Part shown: positions 2,166-55,637 of the stretch, piece after piece
Numbering within the stretch: position 1 is the first letter of the stretch
Layout of the letters: each line of letters begins with the position of its first letter
Origin: Xestospongia bergquistia
Lineage: Eukaryota; Porifera; Demospongiae; Haplosclerida; Petrosiidae
Reading direction: 5' to 3'
DNA: 64,000 nt
Assembly (NCBI GenBank): GCA_963965975.1
Contig: OZ014422.1
Coordinates: forward strand, 1,674,001 to 1,738,000
Position numbers and translations under genes: made by a program
The notes under the pieces: generated by a model
The model's input: the letters and a program-made list of their open reading frames with translations, nothing else
Database searches by the model: none
Told to the model about the DNA's origin: nothing

Positions 2166-2222
2166 TAACGTCATACTTTCAGCTGTAACAGGAAATCCTG
2201 TTCCCTATTTTTATAAAAAAAG
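2166..2222 (+). promoter_or_regulatory. Candidate core promoter of gene A
   Basis: The stretch holds a CRE-like block (AACGTCAT, about 2167-2174), a palindrome AACAGGAAATCCTGTT (2187-2202) whose centre resembles a kappa-B half-site pair, and a TATA-like TTTTATAAAAAA (2210-2222) about 45-55 bp before the start codon. Spacing and order fit a TATA promoter. The assignment rests only on motif position. Confidence 0.35.
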
Positions 2223-2266
2223 TCGTCGCTCCCATACATCGCTCAACTGTCAACGAACTGCCTGTA

Positions 2267-2439
2267 ATGGATTCTACTGATTCTGAAGACTCAGACAACA
2301 AGTTTAAGTAAGGATATATATAACTAGGACACATGACTGTATATACAGTGAAACTGAATCCGAACAGGGACTGCCAGATCCCAAAAAATTGCCTTTAGTG
2401 GCTCTGAACTAAATGATGTATATATTTGATGAATTTGTG

Positions 2440-2492
<53 letters not shown>

Positions 2493-27963: not shown

Positions 27964-28205
27964 CTAATTTAAACCACTTTTTTTCCATAGCCATTGCTTG
28001 AATTTTGTCTTAATTTTGACTCTATCCTTCTTTGTGTCCACACCTAGTACTGTTTCCAGGGTGTCATAATCAATGTCAAACATCATATCACCATCCACAT
28101 CAATTTCTTTGAAATTTTCAATGTAATCATCCAATTTCAAATCACGAAGATAATCGGCAATATCTTCTGATGTGAGCTCACTGGCTATTTTTCTCAAATT
28201 ACCAT
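27964..28205 (-). other. Gene B: C-terminal SAM domain exon
   Basis: The acceptor is followed by LRKIASELTSEDIADYLRD, then DDYIENF, DVDGDMMFD, LETVLGV and a KIKTKFKQWL final helix. This is a full SAM fold with the usual helix 1, mid-loop and long helix 5. It is close to gene C and more distant from gene A. The exon before it encodes an acidic, Gln/Glu-rich linker (about 28253-28575) with an SKWFEYVHDLWSE block shared with gene C. Confidence 0.75.
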
Positions 28206-31200
28206 CTAAAAAGGTTTAGAGATGTGCAAAGAATTAATGTAACTAACCTCCTCCAACAGACATGGCTTGATCTTGTATCAGAGGCTGTTGTTGAGAAGGC
28301 ACTTCTTTGTGTTTCTCCACACTGGGCTCTTTTTTATTTTCCTCATCTTGTAGCTGCATATCATCTACTACTTGAAATCCATAAAGACCTGTTGTTGGAT
28401 TGTTGACCTCATCAGAGCTCAAGGGAGCAGAAATGTCTCGCAGATGTTGGAGTTTATGTTCAGACCACAAATCATGAACATATTCAAACCACTTTGACTC
28501 CTCCCCTTCTCCTTGTGATTTGTCTTCTTCTAATTTACTCATTAACCTGAGATGATAATTATGGTTAACATTCATTCAACAATTTTTCAACTAACTTTCT
28601 CAGACATATTCGCAGTTCCATATAATTATTGATTAGTACTTGTCCTGGGAAGTGTTTAACAACTTTACCTTCTTCATCACCAAGAATATTGAGATCACTT
28701 CTCAGATATTCAAATATGTTTTTCTAGGAGAAGATCAAACTATATATTTATACATCAATTAAAAATCAAACCTCTTTGATTCTGTCAATGTTGTTAATAA
28801 AGTGTTGTTGATTGCTTAATAGAGCTTCAACAATGACTTTAAGTCTGTCAAGCAGTTCATCAGGATATGCTATTTTGAAGAATGATCATGTACCATTGTG
28901 TCTATAGTCAAAATACTCACTTTGATCATAAGTTTGTTGCAAAGCCATAATGTCTAGCTTATCTCTTTCCCTCAATGGTCTTTTCATTGCTTTAGGTAAA
29001 GTACAAAAGTCATATATTCCATCTTTGATCCATTCTACAACTAGCTCAAGAGTTGGAAACAATTTCTTCATTGGTATGGCAGCAATATGTGTACGATGAG
29101 AATCTTGAAGTCTAAATTGTTAAACATCTCAATAATTAATTAAAAATATATAACTTAAATAAATTAATCTAATCTCGTCACCTTGTCATTCCTAGATGAT
29201 CAAAAGTTTGCATAATTAAACCATCATGGTGAGCCTCATCCTGGTCATATACTAGTTTCGGAAGTGCTTCTCCGATTGTATCATTTATGATCTCTTCCTT
29301 TTGTACTTGATTTTGATTGAGACTCTGGAATAAGTGATTACAAAAAGTATAATTATATTAAAATTTGTAACTGACCTGTTTCACATGTTCAGTAATAGTT
29401 TTTAAACCTTGAGCTACTTCTATCAATTTTTCATAATCCATTGATAGTAGTTCATATTTCAATGCTACTAGGAAATCATCTTCTTTAGATATTGGAACCT
29501 AACAAATCCGATCAATGATGACTATAACATGGCTATTTTAATAGCATAAACTACCTTAAAGTCATCATCTATGTTATCAGCTAATAGCAGTGTTAGCATT
29601 AGCCTTGTGTTACAAATAAAATTATCAATTTTATTATCAATAAGCTCTTACTCTGTAGGGTGCTCCAACTTCACTGGCTCATTTTGTAAGTCACTTTTGT
29701 AGTGAAAAGTTTTCTTCAATTTTAGCCGACAATCAGCAATCTTCAACTTTCCAGCAATATAAGTGACTATAATGTCTTCTTGTATCTTGTCTAAATCATA
29801 ACCTTGTTCACTTTGGTGTTTGCAAATTAGTTGTACAAGAGATCTAGTGAGTATATTAAAACACATAATGTAAAGTTTATATAATCATTATTTAGTTAAC
29901 CTCGGCTGTCCTGTCACAATACATGAATATTCATTAACTGCTGCTGGATGTAGATCTGGTAAAGAAGAATTACAAATATACTTTTGCAGACTTGGATAGC
30001 TCTGAGCCAAAACTTTTGTCCTTTCTATGAAGTGATTATGAAGGTTGATCTGTCAACAAAAGTAATATTGATCATAAAATCAAGATCACACTCACAATGT
30101 CTTCAATAACTAGAAATAAAGAATCTCTTCCTTCTTCTTCAGTAGTTTGTTTAGGTAGAATATGAAACAGAGGAGTTTTTCCACTAATACAAAGTACATC
30201 GCTCTCTCTATTTATATCATCACAATCTTTAGCACGAATAACATAACCTATAGTTTCCACATAATGGTTGTAGCTCTCTGCGAAATGTAGGAAATGAGTT
30301 CTTTACAATAACAATTATATATACCTACCAGTAACTCTCTCGTATAATTTAGTGTAGTATTTTTCAAGTTCTTTTGAGTACTTTCCAGCAGCTAATTCTA
30401 CAGCATCATCAACAGTCATTTCATTAGCTTGTTTCTTAGTAATAATGTAAGAAAGATCAGTATGTATCCATTGATAGAACTCAATAAGAGAGGAAAGAAG
30501 AGCACCTCCAGCTTGGAGAAAAGGGTAATGATTTACAAACATCACTAGAATATTATATGGCCCTCTCTCTTGGTTGGACAAACAATGTTCTTGGACATAA
30601 TGTGAGAAATCTTGCAATGTTGGAGGAAAAGATAGACATTTTGTAAATCCCTACATGTGGAAAACAATTTAAATCAACACATAAAGACAATATTATAATT
30701 ATACCTTAAATCCTTTAGTAATTGATTAGTTTGTAGTACTTGAAAATACTGGTCAATCTATAAGACAATGTAAACTATAATTATATCATTTAATATTATT
30801 AACCTTAGTTCTGACTTCATCTAATGAAGGAACAAACACTTCTTTATGCCACATTTCTTCATAATCATCTCTTTGTTCTGAAGTGTTTAACAAACCACTC
30901 TTCGGATTTTCACAGCATATCTTTAAAATTAATATAATGATTACAACTCTCTTAATATTAACATAATACCTGTATCATTCTTTGCATAGACTGTACTATT
31001 AATAGTGATAGTTGTTCATCAGTTAGTCCAAGATTAGTACTCATATGTAACCACATTACATTCATTTGTGATTTACAATAGTGACGAACAGCTTGATACT
31101 CAGAAATAACAGTTCTTTTAATAATTGATCCTCTTTGAGTCAGTAAACTGACACAAAATGCTCCAAAATTACACCAGAGAAGTAAATAAAGTGAATGTAA

Positions 31201-34200
31201 ATTTAAAATTCCTTTTTCAGCTCGTTGTAAATATTCTGGTCTGCCATATTCTCCTTGTTCATTTAAAACAACACCACAGTCATAAAGTCTTCCTTCTTTG
31301 ATCTCTGAATCCAACTAATTTATTCATGAGAAAGATGTATGACAAATATAGACTACACATACCAAGAATCCAGTGACATAAGTTCCTAGAAGTTCGTCAG
31401 GAGAGAAAATATGATACCACAAATGTGTGGTTTGTTTTGAACAAACTAAAGTGGCAGCTACTACACTTGCCAATGCATTACAAATTTTTTGGTCATGAGT
31501 GTCTAATACATTATATGAAATACAAGTACATCCAAGTACATAGAACATTAATTACCTGTAGAAAAAAAGAAATTGTATATAGGATCAATGTGTCCAGCAC
31601 AAGAATGTGAAGACATGTCAAAATCATGAACAAGATCTTTGTTCAGAAAAGTGATTATTAGTCTGATAACTTTGTCAGAAAAGTGTTTTTCTAGCTGTTC
31701 ACTTATAGCTTTTGAAAGACGTTCAGATTTTACCTGTGTTTACAAACAAAGTTGATTTTAATGCAAAGGAGTGCTTACATTTTTCTGATAGTATTCATAA
31801 TAAGCTATTAACCAAATACACATGCAAAATGCATTAATCTTTTGTATCCGGAATGTTTTGTCTGTTGAGAAATCCATTTCTATAAATTCACCTTGGCTTA
31901 TTGTAAATAAAGAGCAAGATAAAGGATATAGGATAAATTAATTACTAATACTAACCATTTATTTGCCATTGTTTTCAATTTACTGCTATCTTTTTTTTGA
32001 TCATGAATTTGTTTCATTAATTCGCAAATTCTTGTATAGAACTGTGTTAATTGACTTTCTTTATTAAAAAAACTTAGGAAAAAGAACTTAAAGTTAGCAT
32101 CATCACGACATTCCTAACGATGTAGAAGTTAATTTAGAAAATATCAAATAGATTTTAGTTATTATCTCTAACTTTTAGTTGATCTTTGTATCTTTTTAAG
32201 CAATATATTTTATCCTGAGGAAGATTTCTTATTACTCTGACAAGTTTTTCAGTGCTCTTTAACTCTTTCCACAAATGCATAATGAGAACAAGTCCTCTCT
32301 TATCCTCTAATCCTTCCTTTTGTAAGAGAGTATTAATTTTGGGAAACAGTTGAGCAAATGTCATCTATTGTGTATGTTCATATACAAACATTGAAATAGT
32401 TATGAAATATTATTACTTCTTGTAAGCCAGCAGTCCGAGATAAATTTACTGCCACAAGATACAAACATCTTTGCATAAATGCCTCTCTTTCTAAAATCAG
32501 TAACTTATGTCTTGCACCATCAGGAGAGGTTTCCTCAACCTTTGAATACACTTAATATGAATAATATTTTGTATTTCTACCTTCTTGAAGAGAGTCTCCA
32601 GTTTTGTAATAGCAACAAGTAGACTCATGTCAGTTGTAGTATTGCAGATTTGTTCATAAGCTGCCAGTAAGTACATCTTGACTAATACACACTGTATAAC
32701 AAAGATCATTACAGTTATCATTAATTAATGATTATTTATACCATTTCACTACTGTTTGTTGGTTTATCAGAAATAAACACGTTTGCACATTGTTCAGGAT
32801 CAACTGTTGATATCATTTCTCCCAGTAACTGTAAAAGAATCATAATTAACAATACTATATGATATACTGACATTTGATTGAAATACATTCAGAACATTAT
32901 CAGAGTCCGTCTGGTCATCTTTTGCTAAAATATAAAGTAGGTAATATTTGTATTGAGCGGGAGATATATACTCCAGCAATGGAACTGAGTCAGGAGTACC
33001 AGGTAAAGCTGCTCGGAAAAACCACTGACATATTGCTGATTCCGTTCTATGAAGATTAACTGTGTGAAACATGAATCGCAATATATTATCCACAACAGAG
33101 TTTATGAAGAATCTGCCTTGGTTTGTACTTGATAGTGCTGAAATACATTTTGAAGCAAAAGTTTCAATGCAGACATTGGACATCTATTTCAAAGATTACT
33201 AAACAAAGATTAGTATGAACTCAATACCTTTGCAATGTGATCTTTGTAAAATGTTATGGTAAACTTCAAGCTATTAGGTGTCAGACTCTCACTACATGTA
33301 ATTAGAATGTACACCATATGAGTTTTGAAAAAAAGCAATCTTAGATTGATGTCTTCAACATCATGAAGAGAGTTATAAAGGGATGTCATTTGTATCTATG
33401 ACAACAAATATGAAATTCAGACAAAAATTATAAATATATAATTTATGAATGCACAACTCACAATGTCTCGATATGTTAAATACCATTGTCTTAATTTTTT
33501 TTCTTTCTCATCACTAGTGCTCTGGTCACAAAAGATATTATTTAGAGAATGGAAGCTTTTCTGGATGACAAAACTGCCTAGCTCTTTCTTGAGTAGACAC
33601 ATAGCAGCTTCAGAGAGAGCATCATTCAATTCATCAAATAGAAATGGTTCTAATCTCTGAATTTGGTTAATTGTTTGAGTTAAGTCTATTTTATGAACTT
33701 CAGAGCGAACATGGACCCAGGCTAAAAGAGAGACATACTCCTTTGATTTCACATTATGATTAAAATCAAAGTAAGCATCAACAACTGGATTCAGGTAAGT
33801 AGAATCAGTAGTCTCATTGTCAGATGTACACTTGTATTTAATAAAGTCTCCTAAATATCTTTGCCAGAGTTCATCATTTAATGCTTTTATAATTAAGGAT
33901 AAAATTAGCATCATAGAATCGCCTTTTTCAGTTAACTAAAACGGCAAAAGTTAAGTGTAATGATCATAAAGATATAAAAGTGCAAAAAATGACTTACATC
34001 AACCACTTCTTGTAGCTTTTCCTTCATCACTTCAAATAGCATCTTTTCTTTAGAATTGACACTAGTTTGTGATTTAGGTGATTCAGAACTTTTTTTATTT
34101 AGAGTTTCTTGGCTACAATCCAGCATTTCTTCTAAATAGCAATAGACCATATGAAAAAAAGGAAAGCGATAACCCTTGTTCTTAGGAGGAGAGAGAGCAC

Positions 34201-37200
34201 GGCAAACATGTGGAAGAGATAATAAACTTGGTACTATGAAAAAAAGATTTTTAATGATGTTACCAAACAGTGCTTCCATTGGACTACTATTTGAAATGTA
34301 GTAACAATCCAAGTTACAATCTTCGTTAATTTTCCACAGCATATAAACAACAAACTCAAAAAACAAAGCTTTTATTCTTGTCTGAATATAACTGGTAATA
34401 CTGAGAGTGGATTGATGATGAAATGTGAAGTGAGCAGAAGCTTGAAGAAATTTTGTAACAGTCAAATTATCCCAGTATTGAGTGAAGAGAAAGCAGAGAG
34501 CTTCACCTACAGCAGTACATAAAGACTGTTCTTCATGATGTGCATTATCTTTTAGTAACAATTCTTTGAGCAAGTTTTGTCTGTCAATGATAGACATTGG
34601 TTTATTGTAGATCATACTAGGAAAATCTCCCACGACCACTCTGGAAGATATAACTGGAATAGCTTCTATTAAAAGAGGTTCAAGACGTAGAATAACAGAA
34701 CTATTTGAATTAGGAATACCAAGTGCAACATGAAAACATTGTCTTATGTCAACAATATTTTGTAGAGGTTTAGGAAGACCACATAAAGAAATATTTGTTG
34801 TGAGAGAGTCCAGATAAAAGTGGTCCCAGCCACTTAAAAATAAAGCCGGGTAGCAGTGTGTGAAAATTTGTTGTCCTTGGAGAAGAAATACAATAAGCTT
34901 GTCATCATTTGATGATTCGTTCTCCTTCTGTTCAATAAGAATTCGAAGATGATTAATTGTTTTAAGAGTAAGTTCCTGCATATTAGCTATGATGAGAAAA
35001 ATGGTTTGATCTGCACTTTCCATAAACACCTGGATTTCTCTTTCAACTTCCCTCTCTGATGTATCAGGAGTAACTTTATACACCTTTAGAACCCCTAGAT
35101 CATCATTAACAATACTCTTTAATAGTGCTATTGTGTCTTCCTTTATTCCTTCCAATGGGTAACTTGATGGTAAAAATCCAAACAAATGTGATTGACGAGT
35201 ATACACAAGAACTTTTGTTGCACACAAGATAGACTTCCTATATATTAAAAAACAATATTTGTATATAAATAATAATAATTTAACTTACCAATGATTTCTC
35301 TTTAGGTTTTCAAGATGTGAATTGATCAAGATTTTCAAATTAAAGTGCTCTTGAAATTCAAAGTAAGATTTAATCAAAATATTGGGTATATGCTTAGCAT
35401 TGATAATTAATGCTTCAGGAGTTAGAAGATGCATCAAATGTTTTGTTAGATATCGTATAAGCCACTGCACAATCAATGCAACAATGAGACATGAATTTTC
35501 ATCCATGGGTCGAATGTTAATCTTGGAACTATGTAGAGCATCAAGTGCTTTACAAATAGCGCCTTTGAAATCAAACTCAGGTTTTTTAAGAATCTCAGAA
35601 AATCTTGTATCTTTCAAAAGCATATCAAATAAGATTTTGCTTTCCATCTTCATTTCGTAATCAGAGAGCTGTTACAGAACATAATATATAAAGTACACAT
35701 ATATTATATACAAGCAATATATACATATACATACATACATACATGTATTCATATACGTATATAGACATAATTATATATAATGAGATTCATAACAATATAT
35801 TTTCACTTCCTCCTATATAGCAGGTTTATATTTGAAAATATAGAATTTGTGAGTTTAAAAGGCTGCTTCCTTCTTCAAAAATGGCATAGTAGCAGGTTAG
35901 TGCAGATCTCATGACAAGGTATATTAGCTTTGTCATTGTTGATGCATACAAACCTGCCAACGTTAACTGTGACTTTGTTCAACAGCTATGTACTATTTTA
36001 TGGAGCAATATTGACAGGTTAGTATGAATCTCATGATAAGTTATATCAGATATATCATGGTTCATCAGTCTACATGTGTTATATAAAACTTCCAACTTGG
36101 AATTTTGTAAAAATATTGTCACTTGGGCTTATAGTGCTCAGCAATATCTTTTACAACTTCCTTTGTTGCATTTGGTAGGTATTATGTAACATACAGAGTT
36201 CCAAACTATGATATATGTAACACACACACACACACACATTATAATCAATGACATCACCCATATAAACTGCAGGTAGTATATTTGATTAATACACTTTGTT
36301 ATGTACATAATGAAGATGAACACAATCACATTGAGGTGAATACCTTCACATACACTTCATTGTGGTTGCAACGGAGACTATTACCTAATTAAATATACTA
36401 TATATCTGCAGAAAATCTCATTAATTATAATGTGTGTGTGTGTATAATATATACATTATATGTATAAATTATATATATGTATATAAGCATTACATATCAA
36501 AATAATTAAACAAATACAATACCTGAGATATATTCCATCCAGCTTTAGTCTGTAAAGCTCTTAAAGTTGTGGAAAGAATTGTCAAATACTTATCATTGTC
36601 AAAAGACATAATATCTATTTCACTAGTAATCTGATAGTTATGATTAAGTGAGGAGGGTAGTAAGGTCAGAAAAAGAGAGCATAAAGTCTCATGATTAAGC
36701 TTGTCAACATTGCAATTTATAGCATTTTGATCAGAAGTCATAGCAACAGATGTTTTATCATGTCTGATAATGCTTTCTTGTAGTTGAGGTATGTAACCAT
36801 AAAAACTTCTTGAGCATCCAAGTAAATTCACTAATGAGGTTACCTATATCACAAGTGGTACATCATGAAATTTAAAGAATTTACTATGTGGAATACCTTG
36901 TCAAAAGTAGTTTTAAAAATAATTTGTGTATTGGGATATGCAGTCTCACATAAACTGGAAAAAAGTATACTATGAGAGAACAAAAACTTTTCAAATCGAT
37001 TCAAGAAAGGCTGAGGTGTCTTTTTCAGCTCAGATCTCTTCACAACTACAATACATTGAAATTCTGGATGAACTTTGCATGGTTTAGTGTGAGCTCCAAT
37101 TGAGATATTAGTGAATAATCTCAATCCTTTCTTTGGATCATCTAAAATTCTAAAACGTTGATTGAATAATTCATAAAAACTCTCATGAATTTCATCTGTC

Positions 37201-40200: not shown

Positions 40201-43200
40201 TCCATACATCTATTTGATTACTTTTCTGTATATCCACAAGTAATGTTTGTAGTTCCTCTTTCTGTTTAGACCATTGAACTTCCCAGGAGTAGTTCCAAAG
40301 TTTAGATAACATCTTCAACAATTCTGTTTTTCCAACTCCAGTTTCTCCCTCAATGATAACAGGCATACCACACTCACGTCTCTCATGAATATTGATCATT
40401 TTCAGAGTATAATCCAATGTGAGGACATAGTTATTGTCATCAATAATCTTTAACCTTTTATATTGTCTTTCTTTAATTGGTTTACCCATTTTGTCAGTTC
40501 CTACTTGTACAACTTCAGTTACTTCTGATAAAGGTAAACTGAGAGCTTTTGCTAAGTACTCATCCAAAGTACTCCGTTCATAAAGTTTTCTATAACACAA
40601 TAAGTAATTTGCAATGTAACATTTTAAAAGATCAACTCACTCCATTTCTGGAATGTTTAAACCAAGTAACTCTAAAGCATTAAAGATGTTTACAGAATTC
40701 TCTTCCTTGTCTTCACTGTGCTGCATTTTATCAGGACACAAAGTAATCAAAGTAATACTACCGAGACCTCCATATTGCTCATAAATCAACTACATATAGT
40801 GAAACATCAAAGTAAGTAACTATATTATATTGATCATTATTACCTGTTGATGTGCACGTAATGACCAATCTTCTTTTGTAGAGGGATCACAAAATTGTTC
40901 AACTTCCTTCAACATTACTTGCATTAGAGTTGAACCCAACTTCTTTGTATTTTCTCCATTTGGACCAATTCCTTGATTGTAATTGTATCCTGGAAAGCTA
41001 TCAAGAAACTGGCAACGTCTTTTCATATACCTACAGAGGTAATGATAACAAAAAAACAAAGAATTCTTTCTTACTTAATAAACAGCTTTTGACAGATTTT
41101 ACGTTCTTTTATATAATCACACATATACTCATTTAGCAAAGTCAGACATTCAGAATTGTCAATATTATCTTCTTTACCAATCTTAACTGGTGCTCCACCT
41201 ATATAGCACAATAGCATAATTCAGAGTAATTATACTAACCCTTTTTATAAAGACGATCTATCCCTCTCCCTGGTTTTCTCTTCTCTTCATTAAGAGCTCT
41301 CAAGTACTTACACACTAGTTGTACATCATCATCAACTACATAAGGTATACTGGAATCAATGTGTTTCTCAGTACCAATAAAACAAAATGTGGGAATTAGT
41401 TTTCGGAATGTGGAAAGATTTTCCTGAGGACTATCACTAATTGAAGGAACCTATATATGTGAATATTAATATTCTCACTGTCATTAATCAGACCTCAATG
41501 TAAGCTTTCCAGTTAAGTCCCTCTGGAACAGCAAAAGTCATTCCAGTATGTGAGTCTTGTACATATCCCAGTATAAACAGATCAAACATAAACCATCCAA
41601 TTTTGTCCATCAGTTGAGTGAACTGTTTCCTTTCTTCATCTGCTACAATGTCCTGAAATATTAATGATCATAATCATAATAGTAATGATGCTAACAAAAC
41701 ATGAACAAATGTATAGAGTATATATTGACATACCCCTGGAGGTAAAACAGTGAAGTTAAAGTGAATAGAGCAATCAACGTTATCATTCAAGGAGTTCAGC
41801 TTGGAGAGAATACGACCAACAGAGAATGCTTCGTTAATAGCTAATATTATATTGGACTGACCAAGTTGATTATTAATGTAATGAGTCTTTCCATCACCTA
41901 GTTAATAGAAAGGTACGAATGTTATAATGCAGGGATGGTGGTAATTACAGTACTAGATCTATATACATTTCCTTCATTTTGTAAATTTTTAAAATATTGG
42001 TTAGAGTCTTTGTTTTGGAAACATCAAAGTGGATTTCGATTTTATGTATCATTCTGGTTATATTAATTGTTTTACTAAGGATAGATAATTAATCACATTA
42101 AGAGATAAAGAAACTTGAAATTAAAAAAATGTTATGATTGTTTTATCTTTTGTTTTGCTATATGTAATGATGCTACTGTTATAACATTCATTATTGAATT
42201 GACAGAGTCATTCTGCATTTTTGAAGCCACAAAAAATTCATATAATTCCCAGGTCTATGTAAAATGCATATACTATAAGCCTCATTCTTAATAGGTCATA
42301 AATTATAGTATTCATTGTCTGTGTGCTATTGATTGTATTCTTTTTATTTAGGGATGACTTGATGTGTTATTGTTTAACTATCTAATCTGCAGATTTTATA
42401 ATTGACAGGTATAGGATAAGCACATAGCATGTGTAATCAATACCTTGTAAACCATAAACCAGCTCAACAACAGAAAAAAAGATATTTTTAAGAGTTCTTT
42501 CTGCATCTTTCTTTAACTGAAGTGTCTGTAAAATATATATATATATAAATAAACAGGATGTCACTAAATGTATTATATTACAGTAGTGTTGATACAGGGA
42601 GCATCATATAACAGTGAAGAGGAAGTCTCAATAAAGTGAATAGTAGAACAATTTCCAGATTTTAATATTTTTTCAAAAATACCCATGTATTGTTGTAACA
42701 AGTTCTAATAAATATAAGAATTATTTATTGTGTTATTTTGTTGATAATTCACCTCTTGTAGCTTTGAAGGTAACTTATTTATTTCAACAAAATAGTAGTG
42801 TCTGCAAAAAAAACCAATTCTCTGGAAAAAGAGTTTAACATCACTTTCTGTTGTGCCAGAATGACATCGTAAAATTTCATAAGGTTTAGGTATCTGGTCA
42901 TTAATGGAGACAAGATACACAATGAGTTGTTTGGGAGAGAACTTGTGACACTGATGAAGAACAGCATGACTACAAAAAGCTGAGCTATGAGGAGGTGGAG
43001 TTGGTAACTGTAATTCAAGGGACCGGAATAACTTATCAAGAAATAATCCAACAACTTCTGTTGGGGCTTCAATAGGACCTACAGAATTTGACAGCATCTC
43101 AGGCTCCTCCTATCAATGGTAAAAGTGAATATTCCCAAAATATAGTGAAAACTTACAAAATTTGTTATGACACTATCCCTGTGGTGAACTGGTATGAGAA

Positions 43201-46200
43201 AACGAAGTTGTGTGGAAATTTTCTGAGAGTTTAATGTCTTTTTTGATAGGTCAACAGAATGCATCAATTTATATAGTTCAAGAACACTTTCATTAGTTAG
43301 AAAAGATAGCCATTTAAAATTCTCTCTGTCATTTGATGCTTTATCAAACCATTCTGTTTTATCTTTCTCTACTCTCTTTACCTAGTAAATAAGTCATTGT
43401 TTTATTACTAATTTTAGCAACTTACTAGTTCTTGTAGTTTAGAAATTCCATCAGAACATTTAATTTTGTACGGAAAAATGGTTTTAGAATAGTTTGGATG
43501 TCCCATCTTGTTTAGAGATTCCATCACACTCTGTACTGTACTCATTATCTTCAGAAAATGGAATTATGAAATGAATGGAATAAAAATTCATTTACTTCAA
43601 ATAGTTCCATAAATGTTGTCATCATACTAGTATTTTCCTCACCAGCTTCAGCAAATCCAAGTCGACGAACAAAGTCTTCAATTTCAGTCATATTCCAAAC
43701 AAAATATACCTCTTCTTTTGGATGACAGGTAAGACTTGCACTAGCTTCATGCCCAGACATTTGATATGAACTTGACTCAGGTTGGAACTTCAAAATAATT
43801 CTCTCTTCATTAATTTCGACCAAAGATGAGACTCTAATATGAAAAGTGCCATTAGCAATAATGCTGTGTAGTTCGTTAGCAGTATTAGCAACTGTGTCAC
43901 CCTAAAAAAAGAGGAATATTTTGGAATTTGTTAAAAATAAATATTTATTGTACATACTTCTGCTCTTGAAAACCACATTGTAATCAAGTCAATATTATTG
44001 TTGACTGCCCGCAATTGAGACAAACAAGTGGATATTTCTAGCCGAGACACAGTCTCAACAACTTTATGAAATGAAATATCTGGATTATTTAATGGAGCAA
44101 GAACATAGAACACAGCATACAGCTTTGTTAGAATTTCTGCATTATACTCTTCATGTTGAAGCTGTTGAGTTACAAGAGCTAACAATTGTTCAAATTGGAC
44201 TTGCCCTTTCCCCCGGAAGTTGTTCTCGTTAAGAAAGCGTCGGAGTTCTTTAGTATGTGTATTAAGAGGTTCAAAAAGTGAAAGAAACTGAAATTTCTCA
44301 GATATGTCTTCTAGAGTAGATTGAATGTCAAAAATATTCTGGATTTCTGTTAAAATCTCAGTAATATTTTTTAAGATCTTTTCTTTCCGTGATTTCTCAT
44401 TTGTGTGTTCATCTACTATTTTCCTCAATCTTATCATCTCCCAACTCTTCAAGCATTCTTGAAGTCCAAAGTCTTCACAAAATACAAACAAAGAATCAAT
44501 GTGCTCAAGAATGTGGTGAAGATTTATCATATTCTCAAAATAGACAACAGCATCAGTGCTACCAAGCTTCATGAAGTCTGGAAAATTGGTCATAATTTCA
44601 ATCTCTTTCTTAACATATTTGAAGTTCTTTGTAGCATCTGCTATAGGCTCAATATCTAAAAATGTTACATCCCCTGTCAAAATGTTAATCAATTTGGTTT
44701 TCACCCTCTTCAATATCTCTGCTAACTGTTGAGGTGTGACACTTTCATCACCTGATAACTCAGATTTGATAATAGCTTTGAAGATGTCACTGCCATTTAG
44801 GTGGAAATGATCAAGCATAGGCATCATATCCAACAGAGTACCAAGAAACTCTTTAATATCACAAACTAGTTTGTTCAGGTTTCTTAATGTAACATTTGCT
44901 TTAACTTGAAGACATGGTGAATGACAAGACAACTGTTGAACAGTAGCACCATCTGGTTTTGAATTTGGAAAGTACACAGAATCACGAATACCTTTAGAAA
45001 TATTTTCAGGAAATTCAATATTGTAAGTTAACAAGATATCATGGCGACTATACCTATGTAATATAAAAAAACTTAAAATTATAATATTATGTTACCAGTC
45101 TGAATTATTCTTCAATGATTGAATTAACAGTTCCGTAAGAAATTCTTGATGTTTCAAGAATATTGTTTTCCTATTTTCTACTTCCAACTTTGGCACTATT
45201 TCTGAGTTTATCTCAAAATTGCCAGCAACCTTCAAAATAATGTCATGCATGACAAGATAGGTATTTAGTTCATCAGAGTTCACTTCATTACTCAAAATTT
45301 GTGTCTTAAAATTCCTCAAAACTTGCATTAATGCATCTGCCATAGACATGTAAGCTGTAACCTGCAGAAAGTTAGCATCATCTTTTGTAGGAGCACCTCT
45401 TTCTTTGAGTTCACAATATAGAGGACTAACTCTACATAGGATGTCATGATATTGATAAATCTCAGCAATGGTAGACTCTGCAGATATTTTGATTCTTTTA
45501 CAAATTCCACCAAAAAATTTCCAGTAAAAGCATAGAGAATGTTTATTTCCTTCTTTCATAGTGTCACAGAGAGTCTGGGTCATAGTGGTCAACATATTTA
45601 GCCACTTTTGACCTGTCATACTTCCAGCTAATAATTTCTATAGAAAAATAATAAAAAACAGATTGTTACTTGCATTTATATAGGACAGATTGATTACTTC
45701 AGCAATGACATCTATTACAATGTTCTTGAACCATGTCACTCTTTTTAATTGCATCTATTTTGATTAAAAATAATTAGAAAAAGGTAATTAATGCACAAAC
45801 AACCCACATTAATTATCTGGAAATGATTTGGGAGTATAATCTCAATGTCATGTTGAGAAACATATGTTTTTAAGAAAGCTTTAAAATCATCAACGACTTT
45901 AAAATCATCTTCATTATTTTCACGAGTGATCAAAAGACAATCCACATCAACTTGAACAAGATCTAAAATAAACTTTGTAGATTCATTCCTTTTGACATAA
46001 CATTCAGATAAGGGCTTTAAGAGATGATCAATCAAAAATTTGTGAGCAGAGGCACCTCTAAACCTATACATTAGTTTTCTTTTAATCAATGGGCTACAAA
46101 TTTGAAGTACCACCAACCTATTTGAGAAGTGTTCCAATGCTTTAACATGTAGGTCATCAAGATATTGTTCAGATATAGGAATTTTTGTACCATAATTCTT

Positions 46201-49200
46201 AAAAAAATCAATAACAACCTGAGATGGGGAAATTGGTAAAGAGAGTTATGAAAATATTTACCACTGTATTCCATAGATCTTGACAAGATAATTCAACAAA
46301 ATGCTTTAAGCTAAAGTTGAGCAAGTTTTCCTTTCCCTTCTGCTGTATCTAATAATTTATAATTATGTACAAATAATATAAAAATAGTTGAAATTGTTAC
46401 CTGCTTCATGTAGTGGGACAACAGATTTTCTTCGCTAAGTAAATATTTAGAGGATGCTTTGAGCTCTTTAATGATATTAATATTCTGTTCATCAGACAAT
46501 TCTAAAAATTGCAATAAAAATGTCATCCAATGTTGTAGGCCCTCTTCAATCTTTTCATCATAAAATCTTTTGGAACATTCAAAAACACAATCAAGATATT
46601 GGAATCCCTGTAAGTATTAAAATCAAGTGTAACAAATCTATAAGCAAATATAAAGTGCTTACTTCTACTACAACATTCTTTCCTACAACAGATGAAATGT
46701 TTGCAGTCTTCTTCTTGTGCTTAGCTGTTTCTACATTAAAAGCTTTTGCATGAATAGCTAACGTTTGCTGACAAAAGTGATCATAGAATTCATCAGCTGT
46801 TTTTATCCACTTATGCATATGCACAACAATATAACTGGTATGATACAATCACCAACAATTTAAACAGTATAAGACAAACCTCAATTCAGGGAAAGTACGT
46901 GGGTTTCCATTTTTTTGAATCAACAGTTGAAGACCACCACAACCAATAAATGTTTGTCTATACTCTAATTCAATATCATCCCCATAAGGAAAAATTAAAG
47001 CAAGGCTTGCTAAAATTTTTGAAGTCAAAGTAACAGGTGTCAATAACTACAAATGTTAATATTAAATATTAAAATTCTGAAATAAAATATTAAATACCTT
47101 TATAACATTATCATTCCATACATCCAATGGTTTAGTAAAATAACTACTTGTAGAGCAATCTGTAAACTTAAGTGCTACAGTAACTAAATAATAGCATAAG
47201 ATAACAAAGTATATCAGAATTTAATGCTTAACATACTCCATATCATTAATATCGTTAAATGTTTGCACAAACTGTCTTCATGAGTATCTTCATGTTTCAA
47301 GTCATTTGTATAATCTTTCATCAATCTAAGTATACCATTGTGTATTTTATGATAGACTGGGAAAACAGAAGAGTTGTAGTCCATGACATCAAAGTTTCCC
47401 CTATTAAATAATAAATAGTACTCAATTTAAAAGTTAACCATTGCAGAAAACTAGTACCAGTTTACCTTTTACAAAAATCATTCACGGTCGAGATAATGTC
47501 TTCAATCTCAAGATTAACCATATAGTTGATGAATTTTTTACTGAATGCACTAATAACTAATGATCCTTTGGTATTTGACTTTGTTCTGACAATTTTTGGT
47601 TTAAAGTAATGATTTTCTGCATCTAGCAACAAACATACAAGATGAATAAGAAAGATAAAATCTTTCCTATAAATTTTTTGTAAATAATCGGACAATCTAT
47701 TCACTGCCTCATTTAGATTTTGTTCCTGTTGAATAACTATTAAAGATTAAAATAAGTTAATTACATTACCGTCAGTAAGTCCTTTTTCACAAAGGCACTC
47801 GTTATTATCATAAATGCTCCTGGATTCTCACTAACAGTAACTGGGTTTTTTCCATCAGGGAAAAGATATGTTTGTAAGTGCTCTAGCAGATGATTCCTGT
47901 GTGACACAGTTTTGTCAGCTGCAAAAATGCAAATAGATGTAAAATTAATGATCATAATTAACATACAATTTCTCTGAATGTCCTGATCATGACCATCTTC
48001 TGATGTTACAATGGCTTCCCTAAATATTAATTGACCTTCACAAGAATCCATGGTGTCAGCAAGAGAAGCTATTGTTTCCCCATTCTTAGATGAAGTAACA
48101 TACACTGGTATATTAATGAAAAATTTTGAATCAGATATCTTAAACTCTGATTGAAGATCTAAATCTGATGATGGGTTGATTAAGAGGATGGCTATTGTTG
48201 ATTTTATGCCCTCAAACTTCTCCAGAAAACTCTTTAGCTTTCCTTGATCCTCATGAGTTAGAAAATGGCATCTAATATGTTGAATTGATGGTTTTTCATT
48301 AAAAGATATTGCAAAGTTTCCTTCCAAAGGTTTCAATCTTTCACTTCGAGCAAGTTGAAATGGTGCTTCAGCAATGTCAATGTATTTACATTCTCTTGAT
48401 TGATTCCAAACACACAAACCTGTTTAATATTATTAAAGTATATTGTTGATATCAATCATACCATTGTGAAATTTTTTGGGTGACAGTCCTCCTTGAAAGT
48501 CAAAATCTATTGTACATTCTGATGATATATGTACATAATCATCTATCAGAAATGATCACATTATCACATTAAAATATTTAGTATTTGATTACCTTGTGTT
48601 AAAGGTGAAGATTCGATAAAATAGTCATCACAAAGTAACTGATCATCATTGTCTTCTGCAAGTGTGGAGATAACTAGTCAAAAATAATTATTAAAGAAGT
48701 TTAGCTGACCAATAGAAGGGAAAGGTTCACCACTACTTTTATTTGGTTGAATGGAGAGTGGTGTCTGGTCATTTACCAGGTTGCAAGAAGCTTGATTAGA
48801 AAGTAAAAAGCTATTGGAAGTAGCAGCAGCTTGGACTTTACTATAAATCAAAGATAGAAGTGTATTAATATCATTTGGGTGATGATAAAAACAAGAGTAC
48901 ATTACATGAACAAGTATGGCTATCACAGTATGAATATCATAACCTGTAATAACAGAAAGAATGCTATTATCCAAACATTCCCATCAAGTTTTTATATTAC
49001 ATTATAAGGTATCTCAAGGAGGAATTGGTAGACTGATCATCATGGAATGCCTAAATTATATATTATATACAGGTAGCATGCCACTGTTATGTAGCTTGGT
49101 TGTTCAATTGATTAATTCATAGGAGTCAATTAAGATGCTCTAAAAATGAATTAAGCTTATACTGGTTTGATTTGGAATTAAAGTTTATTTAGCTCAACAA

Positions 49201-52200
49201 ATAAAAAGGATGTGGTGTGGTATTTTATCATAACTTCAATAGTAATAGCATCACACAAAGGTTTAGCACTCATATTCTAACTATACAAGCACAACAATTA
49301 GAAACTTACAAAAAAGTAGTCAAATCAACAGTGATTTTATAAGCTCCTCTTGAAGATTGCCACTCTAAGTGAACACATTCTGATGGATCAAATGATGGAG
49401 TGTTGACTATAAAAAATAATTCAAAGCACCCCTCTTGATAAGATTGGAAATGAAGGTTGTAAAGGCTGAGGCCCAACAATTTCGCAAGTTTCCTCTGAAC
49501 AGTTTCAACATCAATGCCAGTTAACAATATATTTTCAATGACTTTGAGAAAAAGACTAATTGAGTGCGATTGAGAACTGCAAGGAGAAAATGACTGGGAA
49601 GGTATCTCGAAAATACAATGTTTAAGATATGGTAGGAATGTTTCTTCCTGCCATTGCTGTAACATCTTCTTTTCAATTGGATTGCCAATGACGTCAATAG
49701 TAACTGTAAACAATTGATGGTTAAACCAAGAACTATGCTTTGAAAGCATTAGAAATACAGCTCTCATGTCGCTATTCTCATTACAATTACTCCCTTCAGG
49801 AATACCATAATTTATGGCAATTGCTAATACATCTATTGGATTGACATTACGACTTGCAAAAGAGTCTCGTAGTTTGTGAACAAGAGATGCAAAAGCTATA
49901 CGAACATGTTCATTTTCTTCAATAAGATCATTTTTCATCTTTTCTTTATCAGATTCTGACATTTTATCCCAGTTAGGATAACATTTTTCAGGAAATATTT
50001 GTGATGGTTTTTTTACTAGAGGTACAGCTAGGACATCTTTGGCATGCTTCAAAATAGATTCTGCCACTAGACGATCTTCCATAGCTAAAAAAGCCCTTAC
50101 AAGTGCAAGATAGTTGGCATCGCTACCCAGTTTTCTCTTCCAAGCCCATAGTATAGCAAGTTTTCGATCTGAATCACTAGGTTTCTCTCTAATGGACTTC
50201 AACTTCTGTTCAGAGACATTCAAATGATGACCAACTTCTTCGTAGTCATCAATTTTCATTGCAATTTCAATAAAGAGACTGTCAACATCTGAGCATTCCT
50301 TTTCAATATCTTCAATGGTCATGTTATGTTTCTTTAAGAGCTGTGACAGTTCTAAATTAAGATATATGACAATAATCTTAAGTATTTGTTGCAGGATTAT
50401 TAAACTAAGTCTGTTTTGTTTACTTTGACCTTGTAAATCACTTTAATATAGCTTCTTTGCATTTTTAACACACAAGTTTATGTGTTCTTATGGCAAGTCT
50501 TTACTTATATGGGGTAATACATTTAACTTTGGAACTGTTCAACATATTGATTTCAGACTTGCACTACATTAACAGGAAGATTTGGTACCTTGTATAGTTA
50601 GAAATTTGACAAGAAAAGACTAAGTTATGGTAGAACACAAAGATCAAAGATAACATAAACAGACTTTAATAAGATTCATTTATAGTCATTTGTTATTACA
50701 TACCTTTAGAACACTTTAATTTCAGCTGGTTACATAATCCAGATAGTGTAGGGTCTTTTTCTAGGACCTCAATAAACAGATAGAAATTGTCAGTACTAAT
50801 TTCTATTTGTGATTGCACACATTGCAATAGTTTATTAACTTGATAGCTATGTTCTAAACCAGGGCTGCACACATCTTTATGAACACTAAAACCAATTAGC
50901 TCTGCTTGAAGTAACTCTTTAGACAAATCGGTAGGATTTTGTATTGCATTACTAATATCAGCAATGTGAGAATTTAAAACTTTATATTCTTCAGTGGTAC
51001 ATCCAGAATAACACCGATGTGAATACATCTAGAGTGAACAATTAATAAACTAAGTACAACAATATCATCAATGCACAAAATACATAATTCAATGTGAATA
51101 TTATTAGCAAGGTGTTATGATTATAATTTATATAGTTAGGAACAGATTAAATTTATAGTTAGTTTCAGCTTTATATATTAAAGTTGGAAGGATGATCACC
51201 TTACACTTAATACTAACATTGCACATTTACAATAGAACATTTCACTTCCTGGATACTTCCAACATCCTATTCAACTGACAAAAATGCATTCTCTTCTGTC
51301 TTGGTTAACCCTTTGCTGCTCACTGCGTGGGCGTGGTTACAGTACTTGGTTAATGTGCATGTATGTGTGTGCGTCTGTTAGCCGGCAATGCACTTTGAAC
51401 TGCTTCAACTTGGCAATGACAGCATCTACAGCTACAAAGCCTCACAGAGAAACAGTAAAAGTTAAGCAAATCATTCTGGATAAAGTTGAAATGTCAGGAA
51501 CAAATTCAAAAAGCATAGGCACTGGTGTTTGCTCCAATAAAACCACTATGGATACAAAATATAATTATCTACAATTTCAACCTGGGAATTTTCATTAAAA
51601 TGTTTCATTTTGGACTTTTGGAAAATTTTACTCACTTGCTAACAGCAGTAGATACATCTAGGAGGAGCTGTTGTTGTTGTGAAATTGCCGATATAGTAGT
51701 ATACAAAAGCTACATTACATCAACAAAATATGCAAGTTAGCAAAGAAACAGTCTTACAAAACTACTGTGACTGTTATTGCCACACCCATTATGGTTAAGC
51801 TGGTACTTGCCACACCCATAGTTTTAGCATACTAGCAACAATTGCATAATTAAAGTAAAGAATTTTCATACAATCCTGTTGCTTCTTTATTCTAACTATT
51901 TATTGGTAAGTTCTCCTGTAGTTGCAACATGGCAATTGCAAATGAGCATCACCTTGGAAACTGCGGAGGAGGTTCTGCACTTTTAGTTTAGTGCTAACTT
52001 ATTATTTTATTCAGTCATTAATTAATTATTAAATTAAACGATACGCAGCTCGTATTTATTCACCCAGACATGTAAAAGAAGTTAGCATTTAAACACTCTG
52101 TTTAGGTTCAGAATTAGGCCATACATAGGGCTTAGCATTAAAACAACAATTAGGACCTTTCTGTCTTCATCACCGTAGGCATGCAGTACTAGTGTCAACT

Positions 52201-52332
52201 GATGCATGACGAGCGCTCCAATTGTAATACAATGCATAAAATCAATATTACAACAAGGTATATGCTTACACTACCACAATGCATTATCATAATATGAATT
52301 TATAAAAGATCGCTCACCTTTTGATCAGCCAT
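27964..52332 (-). CDS. Gene B: CARD-like/Death/RNF213-core/SAM giant protein
   Basis: Complete multi-exon gene, about 24.4 kb, TAG at 27964-27966. The start ATG at 52332 opens a 15-nt exon (MADQK, donor GTGAGC at 52317), joined in phase 0 to 51028-50704 (six-helix CARD-like fold). Exon 50351-49310 carries a Death domain and a conserved module. It joins in phase 2 to 48840-48710, then phase-1 mini-exons lead into the RNF213-like region. Visible motifs include split Walker A GLQ-GDGKT, AAA3 GETGVGKT (40325-40348) with LDEIN, AAA4 GEPGTSKT (38305-38328) with FMDEAGLPE, the AAA5 TDEIHE...NRFEK block, AAA6, a C-terminal shell and SAM (28205-27964). I estimate about 5,000 residues or more, like vertebrate RNF213. 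No RING or RZ zinc cluster is visible. Reading frames are intact through every exon I checked. It probably forms an ATP-driven signalling scaffold; the function is inferred. Confidence 0.85.
34000..35660 (-). other. Gene B: AAA6 and start of C-terminal shell
   Basis: The exons encode LTPEALIINAKHIPN, VLVYTRQSHLFGFLPSSYP, INHLRILIEQKE, SGWDHFYLDSL and SYIQTRIKALFFEFVVYML. The order and blocks match genes A and C and fall where RNF213 has AAA6 and the base of the ligase shell. No zinc-binding Cys/His cluster is present. Confidence 0.65.
35675..36530 (-). other. Large intron of gene B with microsatellites
   Basis: About 850 bp of non-coding DNA. It contains an imperfect tandem duplication of a CAGGTTAGT...ATCTCATGA phrase (about 35891 and 36012, period about 121 bp), a (CA)n run near 36220-36238 and a (GT)n run near 36432. 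No exon is seen. Confidence 0.6.
36850..37600 (-). other. Gene B: AAA5 unit
   Basis: Exons with HGVRYKLIIDGSEDDSS, CSEFIEESHMH, FQTDEIHESFYELFNQRF, FTNISIGAHTKP and FLNRFEKFLFS. The TDEIHE and NRFEK blocks are among the most conserved RNF213-family segments. There is no Walker A here, as in other family members. Confidence 0.75.
37645..38500 (-). other. Gene B: AAA4 unit
   Basis: Walker A GEPGTSKT lies at 38305-38328 and Walker B FMDEAGLPEERHE at about 38060-38095. VAITNHALDAAKTNRA follows. The unit is intact in frame with AAA3 in one long exon (39069 to 37645), unlike gene A, which has a stop in the matching exon. Confidence 0.8.
38700..40600 (-). other. Gene B: AAA3 unit
   Basis: Walker A GETGVGKT is at 40325-40348, Walker B YLDEINTSSCMGLF at about 39180-39218 and sensor 1 FIIATCNP at about 39045-39068. 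The exon continues through SQRDMQRVFDFYKW, giving the intact reference for the gene A nonsense site. An intron of about 400 bp (about 39500-39940) with only CT-rich tracts lies inside the unit. Confidence 0.8.
41700..42525 (-). other. Gene B: first AAA unit with a Walker A motif, split by an intron
   Basis: One exon ends ELVYGLQ plus one base (about 42433). After an intron of about 530 bp, the next exon begins with the rest of the glycine codon and reads DGKTHYINNQLGQ, then SIHFNFTVLPPG. The intron lies inside the P-loop at the same codon as in gene A, showing that this position predates the A/B split. The 530-bp intron holds no visible gene. Confidence 0.75.
42700..47750 (-). other. Gene B: helical N-terminal stalk of the RNF213-like region
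   Basis: A series of exons rich in Leu, Glu, Lys and Ile encodes long helices. The largest ones are about 45037-43960 and 45619-45096. Sequence blocks such as WFSRAEV and FLNENNFRGKGQ align with gene A (WFSRIEV; FLADNNFLGERGQ). In vertebrate RNF213 the matching region is an alpha-helical arm joining the N-terminus to the AAA ring. Short 45-60 nt introns separate the exons. Confidence 0.6.
48709..49309 (-). other. Gene B: junction between death-fold module and RNF213-like region
   Basis: The Death exon ends in phase 2 at a strong GTAAGT donor (49309). The only acceptor that keeps an open frame is at 48841-48842. It joins to KVQAAATSNSFLL...SSGEPFPSI (48840-48710), which ends in phase 1 and leads into further small phase-1 exons. 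Without this splice the frame stops at 49308-49306, so a short CARD-Death-only product is also possible; an AATAAA lies downstream within the intron on the minus strand. Confidence 0.6.
49310..50036 (-). other. Gene B: conserved module after the Death domain
   Basis: This part follows the Death domain in the same exon and includes SVLIDVIG-like blocks (SSWFNHQLFTVTIDVIGNP), a helix ending LPYLKHCIFEIP, and a C-terminal part with LAKLLGLSLYNLHF and GCFELFFIVNTPS. I recall the same layout next to death-fold domains in predicted sponge and cnidarian proteins, but I cannot name an established family for it. A role in linking or autoinhibition is only a guess. Confidence 0.45.
50037..50290 (-). 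other. Gene B: Death domain
   Basis: The segment reads LFIEIAMKIDDYEEVGHHL, then KLKSIREK, KLAILWAWKRKLG and LALVRAFLAMEDRLVAESIL. Helix spacing, the conserved L-x-x-W pattern (ILWAWKRK) and the final A/E-x-I-L helix are those of the Death domain family. Death domains form helical assemblies with partner Death domains in immune and apoptotic signalling. The domain lies between the CARD-like exon and the post-Death module. Confidence 0.7.
50352..50703 (-). other. Intron between CARD-like and Death exons of gene B
   Basis: A 352-bp intron with a GTATGT donor and a TTTAG acceptor. Phase 1 is kept. No other feature is seen. Confidence 0.6.
50704..51028 (-). other. Gene B: CARD-like death-fold exon
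   Basis: The exon encodes about 108 residues with six predicted helices: EYKVLNSHIADISNAI, PTDLSKELLQAELI, a short GFSVHKDV, HSYQVNKLLQCVQSQI, DNFYLFIEVLEKD and LCNQLKLKC. The spacing, with a hydrophobic LL-x-x-V helix followed by F-x-x-F/I-x-x-x-L, resembles CARDs, as in metazoan adaptor proteins. DED is an alternative. It occupies a single exon, starts in phase 0 and ends in phase 1. Confidence 0.55.
51029..52317 (-). other. First intron of gene B, about 1.3 kb
   Basis: This separates the 15-nt start exon from the CARD-like exon. The opposite strand carries an open stretch at 51284-51598 (including ETVKVKQIILDKVEMSGTN), continuing in another frame to about 51690 (FGLLENFTHLLTAVDTSRR). It looks like a decayed mobile-element coding fragment, but I cannot name the family. 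The rest shows no gene. Confidence 0.45.
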
Positions 52333-55392: not shown

Positions 55393-55637
55393 TTATTTTT
55401 TTGGAGCCACCTTCTTGCGTAGCCACTGCTTGAATTTTGTCTTAATCTTGAGCCTATCCTTGGCTGTATCCACACCCAGTACTGTTTCAAGTGTATCATC
55501 ATCAATGCCATCAAACATCATATCACCATCAACATCATTTTCCATAAATTTTTCAATGTACTCATCAAGCTTCAAGAAACGCAGATAATCTGCAATGTCT
55601 TCTGATGTAAGCTCACTGGCAACTTCACTCAAATCAT
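55393..55637 (-). other. Gene C: C-terminal SAM domain exon
   Basis: The exon reads LSEVASELTSEDIADYLRF, DEYIEKFMENDVDGDMMFD, LETVLGV and LKIKTKFKQWL. It is a full SAM domain, with a helix and mid-loop that are partly deleted in the stub at 26925. Phase 1 joins it to the upstream linker exon that ends PTAAGG. Confidence 0.75.

What the first reader, a model, noticed from the sequence alone, without database searches (positions are those of the whole stretch)
27964..52332. CARD-like/Death/RNF213/SAM fusion: a possible RNF213-based immune receptor or scaffold
Gene B joins two death-fold domains, a post-Death module, an RNF213-type AAA core and a SAM domain in one open multi-exon frame. I know of no vertebrate RNF213 with this layout. 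By architecture it resembles NLR/STAND receptors, with the RNF213 motor in place of NACHT. The domain order is read from the sequence; the signalling role is inference.
Basis: partly seen in the sequence, partly recalled or inferred. Interest (0 to 1): 0.9.

Follow-up and report, generated by a model that had tools for sequence, protein, structure and literature searches.

The report
Sponge RNF213 relative with Death domain
In what looks like a sponge genome, a giant motor protein related to human RNF213 appears to lack the ubiquitin-tagging fingers, to end in a SAM domain and to carry a cell-death-type signalling domain at its front, which suggests an unusual signalling scaffold whose function is still unproven.

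Summary
Gene B holds up at sequence level. On the minus strand, 52332-27964, one open 70-exon model can be built (5,860 residues): CARD-like exon, Death domain with conserved tail, RNF213 AAA core with both Walker pairs, C-terminal SAM. The Death exon's apparent stop lies inside a GT[AG]AGT donor in the 20 best-scoring copies of 20 checked. Gene B's donor fits in phase an exon whose acceptor phase is the same in 5 of 5 Death-less sister genes read. No transcripts were available.

Corrections: SAM is a group feature. Of 24 genes of its group, 18 have SAM and 0 an RZ finger downstream; a second group of 12 has 9 RZ and 0 SAM. An Oscarella protein has RNF213 plus SAM too. No RING or RZ was found, so gene B is probably not a ubiquitin ligase. 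The Death exon is rare: 3 of 24, one of them frame-shifted, and 0 of 120 listed related proteins.

The same Death module also lies upstream of SF1-helicase and LRR exons. The CARD-like fold and an immune role remain unproven.

The parts
52318..52332 (-). possible first coding exon (M-A-D-Q-K), phase 0; weak, the gene may start at the ATG at 51028
   Evidence: sequence and model
50704..51028 (-). CARD-like helical exon, donor phase 1 (AAG|GTATGT)
   Evidence: 13 genome matches including itself; dN 0.28 / dS 0.78 against the C12:1785895 copy; fold unproven
49310..50351 (-). Death domain plus conserved post-Death tail; donor phase 2 at TT|GTAAGT
   Evidence: PF00531 36.3 bits; 106 genome matches, pieces included; donor kept in 20 of 20 copies checked; dN 0.28 / dS 0.73 against L010
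48710..48840 (-). Ser-rich linker exon, acceptor phase 2 (TTTATAG|T), first exon shared with Death-less sister genes
   Evidence: same acceptor phase, read by eye, in L049, L052, L053, L054, L055
48593..48655 (-). linker exon, phase 1
   Evidence: model; weak similarity in L054 (E 0.01)
48462..48542 (-). first well-conserved exon of the RNF213-SAM family part (DDYVHISSECTIDFDFQGG...)
   Evidence: E 3e-10 to L054, 7e-5 to L055, 0.002 to L049, 0.006 to L052, 0.05 to L053
47770..48419 (-). N-terminal RNF213-SAM family exon
   Evidence: 11 matches (pieces and itself included), all on C12 upstream of RNF213-SAM AAA exons; none at the paralog with AAA at C12:1763477
40844..47725 (-). N-arm/stalk exons, including the long exons 45637-45096 and 45053-43958
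   Evidence: homology-supported model; database relatives align from about residue 1341 on
39138..40789 (-). AAA3 region; P-loop exon 40589-40208 with GETGVGKT; Walker B IVYLDEIN
37645..39084 (-). AAA4 exon with GEPGTSKT and VVFMDEAG
   Evidence: E 2.2e-36 to solved RNF213
28248..37588 (-). rest of the AAA core and C-terminal part; no RING or RZ found; low-confidence small exons at 36377-35807
27964..28205 (-). SAM domain exon and stop codon
   Evidence: PF07647 32.6 bits, PF00536 32.2 bits

Best explanation
Gene B is one gene of an RNF213-SAM group without detectable RZ and RING fingers, which has gained, in frame and upstream, a Death-domain module (plus a CARD-like exon) that this genome also has in front of helicase, LRR and probably Roc-like exons. 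Shown here: domains, order, open frame, matching splice phases, group-wide SAM and lack of RZ, constraint on the N-terminal exons. Inferred: it binds ATP at AAA3/AAA4 as RNF213 does, changes shape or self-associates, and passes the signal on by Death (and CARD-like) and SAM contacts to adaptor proteins, not by attaching ubiquitin. It would thus work like an NLR, with the RNF213 motor as switch, in intracellular defence. Likelihood: one-gene architecture about 0.8 (lowered from 0.85 on rechecking, because the C2 parallel has a frame-shifted Death exon and the test for a missing continuation is not very sensitive); non-ligase scaffold about 0.6; defence role about 0.5.
For: Open 70-exon frame. 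GT[AG]AGT donor at the end of 20 of 20 Death exons checked, 18 GTAAGT and 2 GTGAGT, with the stop falling inside the donor. Phase-2 acceptor at the first shared exon in gene B and in the 5 Death-less sister genes whose 5' ends I read. The continuation seen by eye after 16 of the 18 Death exons not upstream of RNF213 (RSYSEKPEV-like) gave no hit in gene B, L010 or the C2 gene, so no whole separate Death gene is seen; of 7 control loci in that test only 4 were found at E 0.005 or better. A C2-cluster RNF213-SAM gene has a phase-2 donor at the end of its Death exon and a phase-2 acceptor next (by eye), followed by an exon with 11 matches in that cluster, itself included. 3 of 24 group genes have a same-strand Death exon within 20 kb upstream against 0.10 expected. 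dN/dS about 0.39 (Death) and 0.36 (CARD-like) against the tandem copy. SAM 18 and RZ 0 of 24; SAM 0 and RZ 9 of 12 in the other group. ATP binding at AAA3/AAA4 switches RNF213 on, and deleting the RZ domain abolishes its activity (PMC12075652, passages seen). P0001 (2,941 aa, 9,129-base contig) covers residues 2842-5856 in one alignment including SAM, so AAA4 to SAM is one reading frame there.
Against: No transcript. The A-T-rich intron 49309-48841 contains an AATAAA-like string near 49190, so a separate short Death gene cannot be excluded. The Death exon of the C2 gene changes frame near C2:9890907, so that parallel may be a broken copy or an assembly error. In the tandem copy with AAA at C12:1763477 the exon 48419-47770 is mostly missing and I could not phase-match Death to its next exon. 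No protein with the N-terminal module was found in two database searches. The CARD-like fold is unproven. RING/RZ absence rests on profile and motif scans; a diverged centre, or a finger split between frames, could be missed. The immune role has no direct evidence. The chance estimate treats tandem copies as independent, which they are not.
Confidence: 0.5

Rival explanations
1. Two adjacent genes: a small CARD-like/Death protein ending at 49306 and an RNF213-SAM gene starting near 48905, duplicated together in tandem.
For: In-frame TAA follows the Death exon; AATAAA-like string near 49190; 21 of 24 group genes have no detected Death exon within 20 kb upstream; the Amphimedon protein P0028 starts, by eye, near the first family exon without Death; the C2 parallel is frame-shifted.
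Against: The 'stop' is part of a GT[AG]AGT donor in 20 of 20 copies checked; splice phases fit, with the same acceptor phase in 5 sister genes; the ORF 48983-48678, which holds the alternative start, has no other copy at E 0.1.
Confidence: 0.18
2. Gene B keeps a ubiquitin-ligase role through an unrecognised catalytic module, with the Death and SAM domains as targeting parts.
For: The AAA core is intact and the RING is dispensable in mammalian RNF213 (PMC12075652, passages).
Against: No RZ match within 20 kb downstream of any of 24 group AAA exons; no full RING pattern in any minus-strand frame 27000-52400 and no half pattern in the spliced model; no RING by Pfam in the C-terminal 1,413 residues; RZ deletion abolishes RNF213 activity.
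Confidence: 0.15
3. The Death module is a neutral, shuffled exon with no signalling role in this gene.
For: The module occurs at about 60 places in the genome; only 3 of 24 group genes have it and one of those is frame-shifted.
Against: dN well below dS for both N-terminal exons against the tandem copy; no frame break in gene B.
Confidence: 0.15

Closest known systems
RNF213 (vertebrate giant AAA+ E3 ligase)
   Same: AAA3/AAA4 core with Walker A and B pairs; homology E 2.2e-36 in the AAA4 exon; similar overall length
   Different: no RZ and no RING detected; C-terminal SAM; N-terminal Death and CARD-like exons
RNF213-SAM proteins of the database (6 of 120 listed carry SAM, among them Oscarella lobularis P0004)
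   Same: P0004 aligns over residues 1411-5711 and has a C-terminal SAM
   Different: no Death module (0 of the 120 listed of 427)
Amphimedon P0028 and Oopsacas P0030 RNF213 relatives
   Same: align over about 1430-5593 and 1534-5714
   Different: no SAM among their precomputed domains; no Death module
NLR/STAND receptors, including sponge NLRs with Death or CARD (PMC12909245, passages)
   Same: N-terminal death-fold domain before an AAA+ type NTPase in one protein
   Different: RNF213-type AAA core in place of NACHT; no LRR found in the pieces scanned; SAM instead
FADD/FAS death domains
   Same: the Death profile's best solved matches
   Different: adaptor or receptor tail, no motor

Membership tests
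RNF213 E3 ligases | RNF213-type AAA core with intact AAA3 and AAA4 Walker motifs | tested here: met
RNF213 E3 ligases | RZ finger carrying the catalytic cysteine | tested here: not met
   12 RZ matches genome-wide at E up to 1, none in the window; 0 of 24 within 20 kb downstream
RNF213 E3 ligases | RING finger | tested here: not met
   Pfam on the C-terminal 1,413 aa; motif scan of minus frames and model
RNF213 E3 ligases | ATP-stimulated ubiquitin transfer | not testable with these tools
   needs protein
NLR/STAND receptors | NACHT or NB-ARC domain | tested here: not met
   pieces scanned: only sub-threshold NACHT, 21.0 against 26.7 bits, on the AAA3 P-loop exon; the whole protein was not scanned in one go
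NLR/STAND receptors | C-terminal LRR or other repeat sensor | tested here: not met
   SAM is the only significant family in the C-terminal 1,413 aa
NLR/STAND receptors | N-terminal death-fold signalling domain | tested here: met
   Death; linkage in one transcript not shown
NLR/STAND receptors | nucleotide-driven oligomerisation | not testable with these tools
   needs biochemistry
CARD proteins | CARD fold | tested here: inconclusive
   no Pfam CARD; sub-threshold HSR in 2 of 11 copies; poor model
SAM domain proteins | SAM profile above cut-off | tested here: met

The most novel reading that the evidence does not exclude
A second, non-ligase branch of RNF213 (RNF213-SAM, RZ lost) exists in sponges, and gene B shows it turned into a death-fold receptor: an ATP-gated RNF213 motor that signals through Death and SAM, an independent counterpart of NLRs, built by plugging in an N-terminal Death module that the same genome also plugs onto SF1 helicases (HELZ2/MOV10-like, recalled), LRR and Roc-like proteins.
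Probability: 0.35. Interest if true: 0.88.

Novelty: new variant of a known kind. Interest (0 to 1): 0.7.

Why it matters
RNF213 limits bacteria, viruses and parasites in mammalian cells, and its ATP-controlled AAA core has been likened to NLRP3 (PMC12075652, abstract start and passages seen). A natural protein that joins the RNF213 core to a Death domain while lacking the ligase finger would separate motor function from ubiquitin transfer and would make the idea of the RNF213 motor as an immune switch directly testable. It would also show death-fold modules being attached to several effector NTPases outside NLRs in an early animal lineage.

Tried and rejected
The first gene model without homology support skipped known exons and was replaced. 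The automatic model's two micro-exons between CARD-like and Death, and a GC donor at 48785, were dropped by hand because direct in-phase joins exist. AlphaFold without an alignment was poor for both N-terminal exons (pLDDT 54 and 40); Foldseek on the first gave no match at E 0.001; the Death exon model was not searched. Profile search of the CARD-like family against solved structures: best E 0.024, an odorant-binding protein. ORF 48983-48678 as a whole exon was rejected: its only match at E 0.1 is itself; only its part after 48840 fits. The AAA4 dN/dS control failed (4 and 13 codons aligned) and is not used. Direct comparison of the C2 exon with gene B's exon 47761-48423 gave no similarity. 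Protein searches for the N-terminal module found no relative at E 0.001 in lengths about 1,881-5,985 (833 candidates) or 474-1,508 (only the 7,994 candidates sharing most words were scored).

Paper searches (PMC open licences only; only the listed titles and starts of abstracts were seen, not every hit): RNF213 with sponge (15 of 42 listed), sponge/death domain/Amphimedon/NLR (28, 15 of 25), RNF213 with invertebrate/evolution/AAA+ (57, 1 of 1), sterile alpha motif (58, 10 of 23), death domain (59, 12 of 31), choanoflagellate (70, none), ZNFX1/ancient/phylogen (71, 3 of 3), sponge/death domain/RNF213-like with at least 2 of 3 terms (75, 6 of 566), RNF213-like or cnidaria (76, 3 of 9,850). None of the listed titles describes RNF213-SAM or a Death-RNF213 protein. 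Passages were seen of PMC12909245 and PMC12075652.

Full report
The window is C12:1674001-1738000 of an unnamed 146 Mb assembly, G000.

Observation. On the minus strand I rebuilt gene B with a small splice-aware program, first from coding statistics alone, then with protein similarity to sister genes in the window and in fetched loci, then cleaned by hand. The result is 70 exons and 5,860 residues with no internal stop from 52332 to the SAM exon, whose frame ends at the stop at 27964. Small exons around 36377-35807, the 36-base exon at 39879 and the 5-codon first exon are weakly supported.

Domains. Pfam finds Death in the ORF 49306-50442 (36.3 bits) and SAM at 27964-28215 (32.6 bits). The ORF 37624-39084 matches solved RNF213 over its residues 35-473 at E 2.2e-36. 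Both Walker pairs are present: GETGVGKT with IVYLDEIN and GEPGTSKT with VVFMDEAG. The profile of 9 Death copies best matches FADD (E 2.2e-4) and FAS (8.9e-4) among solved structures, and 9 of 9 copies hit Pfam Death. The CARD-like exon has no Pfam hit and no solved-structure match below E 0.4. Of 11 copies, 2 have sub-threshold HSR hits, best 21.5 bits, cut-off 24.9; gene B's own copy has none. That HSR belongs with CARD-type folds is recalled, not tested. A single-sequence model is five helices at low confidence.

One gene or two. The Death exon appears to end in TAA. In the 20 best-scoring copies (gene B included, of 106 matches) the stop lies inside GTAAGT (18) or GTGAGT (2); a real stop would not need the bases beyond it. 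The donor leaves two bases of a codon. Only a phase-2 acceptor fits, and 469 bases downstream lies CTATCTTTGATTTATAG|T at 48840. The same exon in five sister genes that have no detected Death exon (L049, L052, L053, L054, L055) has an acceptor in the same phase (read by eye). CARD-like to Death also fits in phase (AAG|GTATGT to TTTAG|AA). After 16 of the 18 Death exons that do not lie upstream of RNF213 I could read a continuation like RSYSEKPEV (L014 and L020 not). That continuation gave no hit in gene B 47000-49310, downstream of L010 or in the C2 gene; the test is only moderately sensitive, since 4 of 7 control loci were found at E 0.005 or better and 3 only at E 0.1-0.4.

Parallels. In the C2 cluster one RNF213-SAM gene (AAA at 9906281) has a Death exon 15.4 kb upstream, ending in a phase-2 donor with a phase-2 acceptor next (by eye), then an exon with 11 matches in that cluster, itself included. 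But its Death exon changes frame near 9890907, with no obvious intron, so this copy may be broken or mis-assembled. The tandem copy of gene B (AAA at C12:1763477) has CARD-like and Death exons in the same order, but the family exon 48419-47770 gave no match there and I found no clear phase-matched next exon. In all, 3 of 24 group genes have a same-strand Death exon within 20 kb upstream; 0.10 would be expected for random placement, with the caveat that two of the three are tandem copies. Also against one gene: an AATAAA-like string in the intron and no transcript.

Group. RNF213-like AAA exons gave 52 matches. Using one row per gene, 24 genes with strong similarity (gene B included) have SAM downstream within 20 kb in 18 cases and RZ in none; 12 more distant ones have RZ in 9 cases within 25 kb and SAM in none (rows left out are told under Tried and rejected). 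Chance would give 0.14 SAM neighbours. So this genome holds an RZ-bearing RNF213 group and an RZ-less RNF213-SAM group, and gene B belongs to the second. No full RING pattern occurs in any minus-strand frame from 27000 to 52400 and no half pattern in the spliced model; SAM is the only significant Pfam family in the last 1,413 residues. The C-terminal 1,945 residues have no match to solved RNF213 at E 0.01.

Elsewhere. A search with the AAA4 part gave 427 proteins, 120 listed. Six of the 120 carry SAM among their precomputed domains, among them an Oscarella protein of 4,928 residues (P0004) and a eukprot protein of 5,642 (P0006, species not shown); the Amphimedon and Oopsacas entries P0028 and P0030 show none. 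P0001, 2,941 residues on a 9,129-base contig, aligns with residues 2842-5856 in one piece and has SAM, so AAA4 to SAM is a single frame there. A profile of the Death module hits 0 of these 120. Searches with residues 1-480 and 1-461 found no protein at E 0.001 in two length ranges. P0028 begins, by eye, close to the first family exon without any Death part. The simplest history is RNF213-SAM first, Death added later in this lineage; two clusters carry it, so it is either older than their split or was added twice.

The Death module as a plug-in. It has 106 matches in the genome, pieces included. Of 61 rows that I chose, 15 have an SF1 helicase exon (AAA_11 and AAA_12) within 20 kb downstream on the same strand (0.8-9.4 kb), 3 an RNF213 AAA exon, 43 neither. 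Of the four stretches downstream of other copies that I read, L062, whose gene also has the CARD-like exon (C4:592107), has LRR_6 repeats (41.4 bits); L061 has a sub-threshold Roc hit (19.0 bits, cut-off 27); the one ORF scanned of L059 and the two of L060 gave nothing above cut-off. HELZ2/MOV10 as the helicase's nearest named relatives is recalled. I did not model those genes, so fusion there rests on order, strand and distance.

Selection. Against the tandem copy, dN and dS are 0.285 and 0.729 for Death, 0.282 and 0.775 for the CARD-like exon: both are constrained.

How it most likely works. In mammals ATP binding at AAA3 and AAA4 switches RNF213 on; deleting the RZ domain removes the activity; the RING is dispensable; the authors compare ATP control with NLRP3, while noting that they saw no ATP-dependent oligomerisation themselves (PMC12075652, passages seen). 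Gene B keeps the switch and lacks a detectable RZ. The most economical reading is an ATP-controlled scaffold whose output is death-fold and SAM contacts. This is inference beyond the anatomy. It may work like an NLR; it is not an NLR by domain content (no NACHT above cut-off and no LRR in the pieces scanned), and it is not a member of the RNF213 ligases by the RZ criterion.

Known literature. Sponge NLRs with N-terminal Death or CARD are described (Dysidea avara, PMC12909245, passages seen; the term RNF213 has 0 occurrences there). The paper searches named under Tried and rejected listed nothing on RNF213-SAM or Death-RNF213; the library holds only open-licence papers and only part of each hit list was shown.

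Noticed in passing
window 9674-26181 (+ strand): A second RNF213-SAM gene on the plus strand, AAA4 exon at 14742-16124 (55% identical, one TGA inside the match) and SAM at 25996-26181.
   Followed up: partly
window 55426-64000 (- strand): The 3' half of the next tandem RNF213-SAM paralog (AAA4 exon at C12:1738303) with its SAM at 55426-55608.
   Followed up: partly
C3:1.70-1.77 Mb, C3:3.71-3.86 Mb, C13:1.20-1.27 Mb; L057: The same Death module lies 0.8-9.4 kb upstream of SF1 helicase exons (AAA_11/AAA_12) on the same strand in 15 of 61 Death rows compared: probable Death-helicase fusions.
   Followed up: partly
L062 (C4:583001-590800) and L061 (C6:8441301-8447300): CARD-like plus Death exons upstream of LRR_6 repeats, and a Death exon upstream of a Roc-like GTPase exon (sub-threshold): more combinations of the same N-terminal module.
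   Followed up: partly
C12:852-975 kb, C12:2.44 Mb, C15:0.80 Mb, C7:7.37-7.44 Mb, C2:10.10-10.19 Mb: A separate, more distant RNF213 group: 9 of 12 AAA exons have an RZ finger within 25 kb downstream, none a SAM.
   Followed up: partly
L056, C2:9890296-9891353: The Death exon of the C2 RNF213-SAM gene changes frame near 9890907: broken copy or assembly error.
   Followed up: partly
L049, C12:1748919-1750403: A 495-residue Pro/Gln/Asn-rich repeat ORF (PPPENQ-type) just upstream of the first conserved exon in a Death-less paralog.
   Followed up: no
L049, L052, L053, L055 (5' regions of sister genes): A conserved coding piece that looks like a transmembrane helix plus tail (VILAVIGALTFCVVEWQYHQ...), shortened by a stop in L053, present upstream of several tandem RNF213 units.
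   Followed up: no
L054, C12:1609149-1610854: Looks like a THAP/DDE-type transposase (recalled resemblance, no scan) upstream of a tandem paralog.
   Followed up: no
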